Assembly (NCBI GenBank): GCA_963971285.1
Contig: OZ020254.1
Span: 16,770,932-16,834,931 of the forward strand
DNA from: Astropecten irregularis
Lineage: Eukaryota; Echinodermata; Asteroidea; Paxillosida; Astropectinidae
Direction of reading: 5' to 3'
DNA: 64,000 nt
Positions 38,101 through 41,100 of this stretch are shown piece after piece. The notes below the pieces were generated by a model. That model had not been told where the DNA came from. It searched no databases and saw nothing but the letters and a program-made list of their open reading frames with translations. The position numbers and the translations under genes are program-made. The first letter of the stretch is position 1, and every line of letters starts with the position of its first letter.

Positions 38101-41100
38101 GACTCGCCTGGTAGGGCTTCCACATGACATGTAGTTGCGTCAGATGGATTGTTATTTTGCTGGTATTGGGATGGGTCATGTGGCTGCCTGGGAAATGGCC
38201 GTCAGAAGACCGAAAGAGTACCACTCGAAGATAGATGCGGCAACACGCTGCAGTGGTGCAAGCTCCCACTGATTGATTGAGAGTATTGCAGCAATAGATG
38301 ATGCTGGATGAGACCACTAGATTTACGACACTGATGAGGTTGAATGAGGCAAGATTAGTAGGATTTGAAGTTTTGCATGATGGAGTGACTAGAATTGGGT
38401 AAGACCTGCAGAGACACCGTGTATAACTCTCTTCTTGGAATGTGTGTGGTCCTGAGAAGGACCCATGTCCTCTCTTCTGAGGACGGCCAGTGCACACTGG
38501 TTGAAACGTAGAGAACTTACTCTCATCGGTCCTTCCCAGGACCACACACCTTCCTAGAAGAGTGTTATACATGGTGTCTCCGCAATTCTTACCCAATTCT
38601 TGAGGCAAGAGTTTTGTAGAAGCAATGATTTGTGTCTTGTATTTTCCCTAGATGATAAGCAGCCTGTACAGCAGAGTAATATCCCGTCTCATCTGGACAA
38701 CATGCTGGCCTTGTTGACTCAAGAAGAGAGGCAGATGGAAGACAATCAGACCGGACCCTGTATGGAATATTTACTGCAGCATAAGATACTAGAGACTCTG
38801 TACACTTTGGGCAAGGCTGATGTAAGTTACCTTACAGTATATCCCTTTGACTTTTAACTACAGGGGCATGTATGTAGTGTGCCAAGTGTGTTAGGCACTC
38901 GCCTCTCACCAACATGACCAATGTGGCCTGGGTTCGATCCTGGCTTGGGTCATATGAGTGGAGTTGTGCGTTGGTTCTCTCCTAGGCTACGAGGGTTTTT
39001 CTCTGAGTTTTCCAGTTTTCCTCCCTCCACAAAAATCTTACTTTTTTGTAGCTGGCTGCTAAGTGCTAAGAAATTTGGCTATATTAGTATTAAGCAGTGT
39101 AGAGGATTTGGCTGTGGTGGACACTACCATGAATCCTTAAAGCTTTTTGTTAATACAAACACGGGTTACCAGAGAAGATTTCATTGCTTGTCACTGGTAC
39201 TCAGCAACCTCGGCTGTATTATGTACACATTCTTTTATCAACCTACAGTATAAGAAACTGGTTTATGAGTTGAATTGCAGTTTTTTGTGGGAATTAATTA
39301 GGAACTAACAGTATTCAACCTTTTTGTATTTGATCTTCAGTGTCCGCCTGGTATGAAGCAAGTCGTCTTGACGTTTTACCTGAATCTACTGGGAAAGATT
39401 AAACAGCCTTTACTTCCACATGTGAATGTCTACAAACCTGTACATGTAAGAAAGATTACATACCTGTATAATGTACATGTAACATTACAAACCTGTACAT
39501 GTAACATGTGTAACATTACAAACCTGTACATGTAACATGTGTAACATTACAAACCTGTACATGTAATATTACAAACCTGTACATGTAAGATTGCAAACTG
39601 TACATGTAACATGTGTAACATTACAAACCTGTTCATGTAACATTACAAACCTGTACTTATAAAATGTGTAACATACAAATATCACATGGTTTGAGGGTGG
39701 ACAGTCGATTCTAGCTCCCGAGGTGATGGAAGTTGACAAACTACAGTTCCCGAGGCGAAGCCAAGGGAACTAGTTTGTCAACTTTCAACACCGTAATCTT
39801 GTTCATACCGTAATTAATACGTAATCCGTAAACCTGTAATCTTAAGGATTTTTCTTTGTTGTTGGTGGCAGAATTTAATCAAAGTGTGTGGAGAGGTACG
39901 AGCTGGTCCTACTGAGAAGGAGGAGATACAGTTCCTGTGCACAGTCTGTTCCAAGCTGAAGGAACATCCATACTCAGTCAACTTCTTCCTAGAGGTATGG
40001 ACACAGTGGGAATCTCAAGGCCCTTTCACACAACGCTAAAACAACTCTCAACCATTGGGAAATTCTCTCATGGGTCTGGACCTCGGTCAAAATCTCTCAA
40101 GGATTCACCAAGGACGTCGGTCACTCTCAAGCATTGATGTCCTTTCACACAATTACACTTTTGTAAGATTTCGCAACCATGAGAGAATTTCTCAATGGTT
40201 GAGAGGTTTTTTAACTCTTGCCAAGATCAAAAATGTTTTTGGTGTTTGGTTTTACTCTTTCTGGATAAATACACCATTTTAGGTGCAAATATTTCAACGA
40301 TATGTTTCTACCAGTACCATCTTTAAAGTGAAAGTTATACGTAAATCTGTGGACATTTCTGTTTGGGTATGTTACCAATCCTATACTGTACCTTTAAGTG
40401 AGGTCCTAGTCCCACCCTGAAGTTGACTCACTGATTCACTTCAATGGATTCTTATCTTTAGTAATTTGAATACAGGAAGTTTAAGCAAATTATTTAAAGA
40501 AACTGCATACCTAAATATTAGTACCCTTCCAAATGTTGTTTTATGTTACTGTTAGCTTCCAAGACAAAACAGCAGAAGGCTCAGAAACAAGTCATCTTCG
40601 TCAGCTGGTAGTAGAACAAGCCTAGATGACATCACGCAGCCGGAGTTCAGTCTGGTCAACTCACTCGTAGCACTTGCTCAGAGTCCTGTAAGTATTTATC
40701 AGAAATGGGAGAGTTTTGCTGGTTTGCAGTCATGTAGATACATCATTGAAGGTCTGTGACGTTTTGGTTCCCCCAAACATTCCAAATGGAGCACAGGTTT
40801 TTCTGTAGAAGCCTGTATCATTTGTAGAATAGATTTCTTGTGTTGCATTAGTGCTGGGATTTTTATCCAGTTAAAGGTTAACCGATCCGAATTTAATTAT
40901 CCGGTTACAAATTTCCACAAACTGTTAATTGAAATTGAAAGGAAAAAGAAAGGACGAACCTTTGGCTCATGCTCAGCAACCCAAAAATGTAAACTGTAGA
41001 ATTTCAGTCAGTTATTTTGTCCATTTTGCCAAGTAGAAACATGCTTTTTACATACTGGGTCTAACAGAAACATTGTGTACTTGATCTGAATGCTTGATCT

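What the first reader, a model, noticed from the sequence alone, without database searches (positions are those of the whole stretch)
39432..39674. A tandem array made of a FHIP2 exon end plus its 5' splice site
The last bases of FHIP2 exon 4 together with its donor (ACAAACCTGTACAT|GTAAG) are the first unit of an array that repeats the same string about nine times into the intron. Each intronic unit with ACATGTAAC or ACATGTAAG is a potential decoy donor, so the real donor must be chosen among near-identical neighbours. Using a later copy would add array-encoded residues or frameshifts. This is seen directly; the effect on splicing is inference.
Basis: partly seen in the sequence, partly recalled or inferred. 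Interest (0 to 1): 0.7.

Follow-up and report, generated by a model that had tools for sequence, protein, structure and literature searches.

The report
Exon-end minisatellite in echinoderm FHIP2
The end of a conserved exon and its splice signal has been copied about nine times into the following intron of an echinoderm gene; such arrays are already known from lancelets and humans, and only one of the copies looks as strong a splice site as the real one.

Summary
FHIP2 exon 4 (39341-39445) with its donor shares at least 20 nt with an intronic array of about nine units; 1000 shuffled exons shared at most 13. The exon most likely came first: its last nine residues add 20.6 bits to a gap-free Pfam match, and the exact 18-mer occurs elsewhere only as three isolated copies. 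The decoy idea is partly supported. Of seven intronic CATGTAA copies, five have +5 C and one +5 T, about 4 bits below the real donor; one (39585) equals it at every scored position. Its use would bring an early stop. Boundary-spanning arrays are known: "mirages" in amphioxus genes and similar repeats in human genes (PMC3087553, PMC3902484, PMC2812944). The source is an echinoderm by mitochondrial code, probably a sea star; the searches I ran listed no echinoderm case. Consensus-donor arrays are not enriched genome-wide (50 matches, 57 in the control). No RNA data and no related species were available. A new member of a known kind, of modest interest.

The parts
39341..39445 (+).
   Evidence: PF10257 on this exon alone, E 5.4e-9, profile 22-56; the genome-wide match ends exactly at window 39445
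39418..39448 (+). First (exonic) unit of the array: last 28 nt of exon 4 plus GTA of the donor
   Evidence: 27/32 match to the 32-nt unit string; best match away from this place 22/32 in 194 kb
39446..39451 (+). Authentic 5' splice site CAT|GTAAGA
   Evidence: Exons 3-4-5 joined here: 97 residues on PF10257 positions 1-97, E 2.2e-37
39450..39690 (+). Intronic array, about nine units (some degenerate), mainly 22- and 31-nt forms; 74-nt higher-order duplication at 39509-39656
   Evidence: TRF, repeat finder, unit alignment
39585..39590 (+). Twin donor CAT|GTAAGA, identical to the real donor at -3..+6 and over 15 nt upstream
   Evidence: Matrix 3.96 and 3.96, U1 duplex -4.4 and -4.4; use gives +139 nt and a stop in the array
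39479..39484 (+). Weak copy CAT|GTAACA; the only one of 11 tested downstream GTAA sites that leaves the frame open (+33 nt, [11 protein letters not shown])
   Evidence: the 11-residue insertion lowers the PF10257 score from 130.6 to 117.6 bits
39872..39994 (+). FHIP2 exon 5, acceptor TGGCAG|AATTTAATC, donor GAG|GTATGG
39722..39792 (+). Hairpin repeat in the same intron just after the array; a dispersed element
   Evidence: 22-nt arms, 91% complementary; core string at 55 places in the genome, 0 for the reversed pattern

Best explanation
This is a local minisatellite that began as a tandem duplication of about the last 28 nt of FHIP2 exon 4 plus the start of its donor, and then grew inside the intron by slippage or unequal exchange (the 74-nt step points to at least one multi-unit duplication). 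The exonic copy is held by coding constraint. Most intronic copies carry C at donor position +5, perhaps from one founder unit, so they are poor donors, and the spliceosome most likely keeps using 39446, the first strong site. The array and its identity with the exon end are shown; exon-first origin is well supported; the growth mechanism and normal splicing are inferred. Some leaky use of the equal donor at 39585, giving a stop-bearing and probably degraded transcript, is possible.
For: 20-nt identity against a shuffle maximum of 13 in 1000. The exon end fits the family: native 130.6 bits; masked 110.0; three shuffles 109.9, 117.9, 112.7. It aligns without a gap to human FHIP1B at this place (weak overall match, E 0.0069). 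The exact 18-mer is at 8 places in the genome, 5 here and 3 isolated elsewhere. Six of seven intronic copies lack +5 G, while 8 of 9 FHIP2 donors read have it. 74-nt internal duplication, 93% matches. Published amphioxus cases with the same anatomy.
Against: No RNA or related species could be read. 39585 is as strong as the real donor by both measures, so exclusive use of 39446 is not shown. The donor matrix uses human frequencies from memory, and the U1 measure ranks a non-array GT at 39697 above the real donor (-5.5). The direction of copying rests on family conservation, not on an outgroup without the array. Searches of the genome for the unit were by exact 18-mer only.
Confidence: 0.85

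Rival explanations
1. The array acts on splicing: the equal donor at 39585 (and weaker copies) competes with 39446, giving a fraction of stop-bearing FHIP2 mRNA, so unit number tunes expression.
For: 39585 is identical at -3..+6 and over 15 nt upstream; its use gives a stop within the array.
Against: The other six CATGTAA copies are about 4 bits weaker; in amphioxus the authors report that their data suggest no interference.
Confidence: 0.12
2. The minisatellite came first, and exon 4 was lengthened into it when the donor moved.
For: Exon-array identity is symmetrical by itself.
Against: The last nine residues fit the FHIP profile with 20.6 bits over masking and without a gap.
Confidence: 0.03
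3. The array is a copy of a dispersed repeat that landed at the exon end by chance.
For: The intron also holds a dispersed hairpin element, and the exact 18-mer occurs three times elsewhere.
Against: In the stretches read, those three are single copies: two in near-identical flanks on C1 and one on C18.
Confidence: 0.03

Closest known systems
Amphioxus 'mirages' (Adh3, TnC, globins BflGb6 and BflGb9, PGBD5): PMC3087553 (passages) and PMC3902484 (passages and section 16)
   Same: Minisatellite-like tandem repeat whose unit spans an exon/intron boundary; many units carry splice signals; unit length 22-31 nt lies within the 10-72 nt cited for Adh3
   Different: Echinoderm, not cephalochordate; another gene; length or somatic instability could not be tested; most copies here lack donor +5 G
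Human internal tandem repeats at exon-intron boundaries: PMC2812944 (passages)
   Same: Minisatellite units (on average 30 bp, four copies) at exon-intron boundaries that can alter splicing
   Different: Those lie in recent segmental duplications and have transcript evidence, with new introns in some
[quoted passage not shown]
   Same: Tandem duplication crossing an exon-intron boundary and copying splice signals
   Different: One duplication that created a new intron; here many copies lie within one intron and no new intron is shown

Membership tests
boundary-spanning minisatellite (mirage in the broad sense) | Tandem repeat unit spans a real exon/intron boundary | tested here: met
   20-nt identity across 39445|39446; 27/32 over the unit
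boundary-spanning minisatellite (mirage in the broad sense) | Many copies carry splice-site dinucleotides | tested here: met
   Seven intronic CATGTAA copies
boundary-spanning minisatellite (mirage in the broad sense) | Normal splicing is undisturbed | not testable with these tools
   No RNA data; only donor scores
boundary-spanning minisatellite (mirage in the broad sense) | Length variation between alleles or cells | not testable with these tools
   One assembly; no reads and no second allele seen
amphioxus mirage in the narrow sense | Lies in a cephalochordate genome | tested here: not met
   COX1 on C168 reads with AAA=Asn, ATA=Ile, AGA=Ser; the table of codes and the judgement of conserved places are from recall
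intron gained by tandem duplication | A new intron bounded by the duplicated copies | tested here: not met
   Intron 39446-39871 has its acceptor outside the array; the array lies inside it. A twin copy of FHIP on C20 has no intron at this place, so the age of the intron is open

The most novel reading that the evidence does not exclude
The array is a length-variable splicing dial: each change in unit number adds or removes near-copies of the donor, and the one full-strength twin at 39585 acts as a poison donor that sets FHIP2 mRNA level. The lack of +5 G in the other copies would then be selection to silence decoys.
Probability: 0.06. Interest if true: 0.6.

Novelty: new member of a known kind. 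Interest (0 to 1): 0.3.

Why it matters
It extends boundary-spanning minisatellites, described in amphioxus and human genes, to an echinoderm, and gives a natural test of 5' splice-site choice: near-identical donors in one intron that differ mainly at +5. It also illustrates the raw material that tandem-duplication models of intron gain need.

Tried and rejected
Amphioxus as source: rejected. I expected a lancelet, but the GFP family and protein searches gave 0 matches (the tool warns that an empty answer shows little), and the mitochondrial code reads as echinoderm.

Genome-wide spread of donor arrays: three CAGGTAAG within short spacing gave 50 matches (45+5) against 57 for the reversed pattern (28+29), so no enrichment; by my grouping the 50 fall into five places. 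I could not tell whether these abut exons; the one stretch looked at (L038) begins inside its array. In 194 kb (window plus 13 of 20 requested 10-kb stretches; seven contigs were too short), a scan for GTRAG first copies with at least two downstream copies found 2 (this one and one in L032 inside a longer repeat) against 1 in reversed sequence; all repeat-borne sites were 5 against 26. So no general process is shown.

RNA structure of the array: z = -1.0, 24 of 200 shuffles fold at least as well.

One search used an exon 5 start one base late for its table of splice outcomes; one search corrects it (its exon 5 stops two bases short of the donor, which does not matter here). One search held several rough exon borders; those used here were re-checked.

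Papers not held: tried as Canestro 2002 by ids from memory; Zhuo 2007. One search found no passage.

Full report
Observation. The string in FHIP2 exon 4 and its donor, TACAAACCTGTACAT|GTAAG, is shared over 20 nt with the downstream array (the test allowed only five intron bases, so 20 is a lower bound). The array covers about 39450-39690 in units of mainly 22 and 31 nt, and one 74-nt block is itself duplicated. Dinucleotide shuffles of the exon reached at most 13 nt in 1000 trials. The exonic unit reaches back to 39418, where ACATGTG keeps the 31-nt register.

Gene model. Exons 3, 4 and 5 joined at 39445|39872 match Pfam PF10257 over positions 1-97 with 97 residues, E 2.2e-37. The whole-genome match of exon 4 ends exactly at 39445. 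The same genome has a second PF10257 gene on C20, of FHIP1 type by my own reading, in which one stop-free match runs over profile positions 2-87, across this place (position 56), so it seems to lack this intron. I did not check exons 1 and 2, and no RNA was available: the model rests on protein similarity.

Which came first. Masking the last nine residues of exon 4 lowers the family score from 130.6 to 110.0 bits; three shuffles of them give 109.9, 117.9 and 112.7. The exon end is therefore conserved coding sequence and the array most likely its copy. The exact 18-mer lies at 8 places in 476 Mb: 5 here and 3 elsewhere, single copies in the stretches read, two of them in near-identical flanks on C1. 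The array is thus local as far as exact matches tell.

Donor strength. With human donor frequencies from memory the real donor scores 3.96; the seven intronic CATGTAA copies score -0.08 (five, +5 C), 0.19 (one, +5 T) and 3.96 (39585, +5 G). U1 pairing agrees: -4.4 for 39446 and 39585, -1.4 to -1.5 for the other six. A GT outside the array at 39697 pairs better still (-5.5) but scores -1.88 in the matrix, which shows the limits of both measures. Of nine FHIP2 donors read, eight carry +5 G; the other eight beside this one score from 1.51 to 7.19, so the real donor is of middling strength. Of 11 downstream GTAA sites tested, one (39479) leaves the frame open through exon 5; ten lead to a stop.

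Source organism. COX1 on contig C168 reads sensibly with the echinoderm mitochondrial code: AAA falls at Asn places, ATA at Ile places, AGA at Ser places (judged from recall of COX1). The stretch before COX1 holds 11 tRNA matches, seven on the minus strand, which from recall fits sea stars; the class is probable, not shown. If C168 is this animal's mitochondrion, amphioxus is out.

Comparison. Tandem repeats over exon/intron boundaries are described as mirages in amphioxus Adh3, TnC, globin and PGBD5 genes (PMC3087553, passages; PMC3902484, passages and section 16) and as boundary tandem repeats in human genes (PMC2812944, passages). Searches joining such terms with echinoderm or sea star listed one paper each, neither a report of an echinoderm array by its title and abstract start; a decoy-donor search found 60 papers, of which 12 were listed and none looked relevant. 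Only open-licence papers are held. By anatomy this belongs with mirages in the broad sense; instability and RNA could not be tested.

Generality. Neither the genome-wide pattern (50 against 57 control) nor the 194-kb scan (2 first copies against 1; all repeat-borne sites 5 against 26) shows that donors are favoured seeds of arrays here.

Verdict. A real and well-defined feature, ordinary in kind, of modest interest; the decoy claim narrows to one copy, 39585.

Noticed in passing
window 41467-42811: About 66 copies of a 20-nt unit (AGTTGTCAGACTCTTCAAGA) in another FHIP2 intron, starting about 18 nt after the donor at 41449; by eye the unit does not resemble the exon end.
   Followed up: partly
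window 43575-43691: CTCTGG-type array starts about 23 nt after the FHIP2 donor at 43552.
   Followed up: no
window 44395-44566: 24-nt repeat inside a coding exon of FHIP2, encoding repeats of the type SVEPANQ(G/E).
   Followed up: no
window 39722-39792: Hairpin element in the same intron; its core string is at 55 exact places in the genome and 0 for the reversed pattern: a dispersed repeat, possibly MITE-like.
   Followed up: partly
window 49846-49892: Histone 3' UTR stem-loop match just over threshold (34.3 against 34 bits), with no + strand stop-to-stop frame of 110 aa or more ending shortly before it.
   Followed up: no
window 60086-60159 (+) and 9023-9096 (-): Two weak tRNA matches in Rfam (34.1 and 33.2 bits) that ARAGORN does not call: perhaps tRNA-derived repeats.
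   Followed up: no
L022 (G000:C131): COX1 match in an unbroken 552-aa frame, bacterial-looking by its code: contaminant or symbiont in the assembly.
   Followed up: no
L024 (G000:C25:9951047-9952018): COX1 fragment with seven in-frame TGA on a contig at least 9.9 Mb long: likely a nuclear copy of mitochondrial DNA.
   Followed up: no
L038-L043 (G000:C8:30631886 onward): Long 26-nt array with the consensus donor CAGGTAAG in some units and CAGGTAAC in others; exon context not read.
   Followed up: partly
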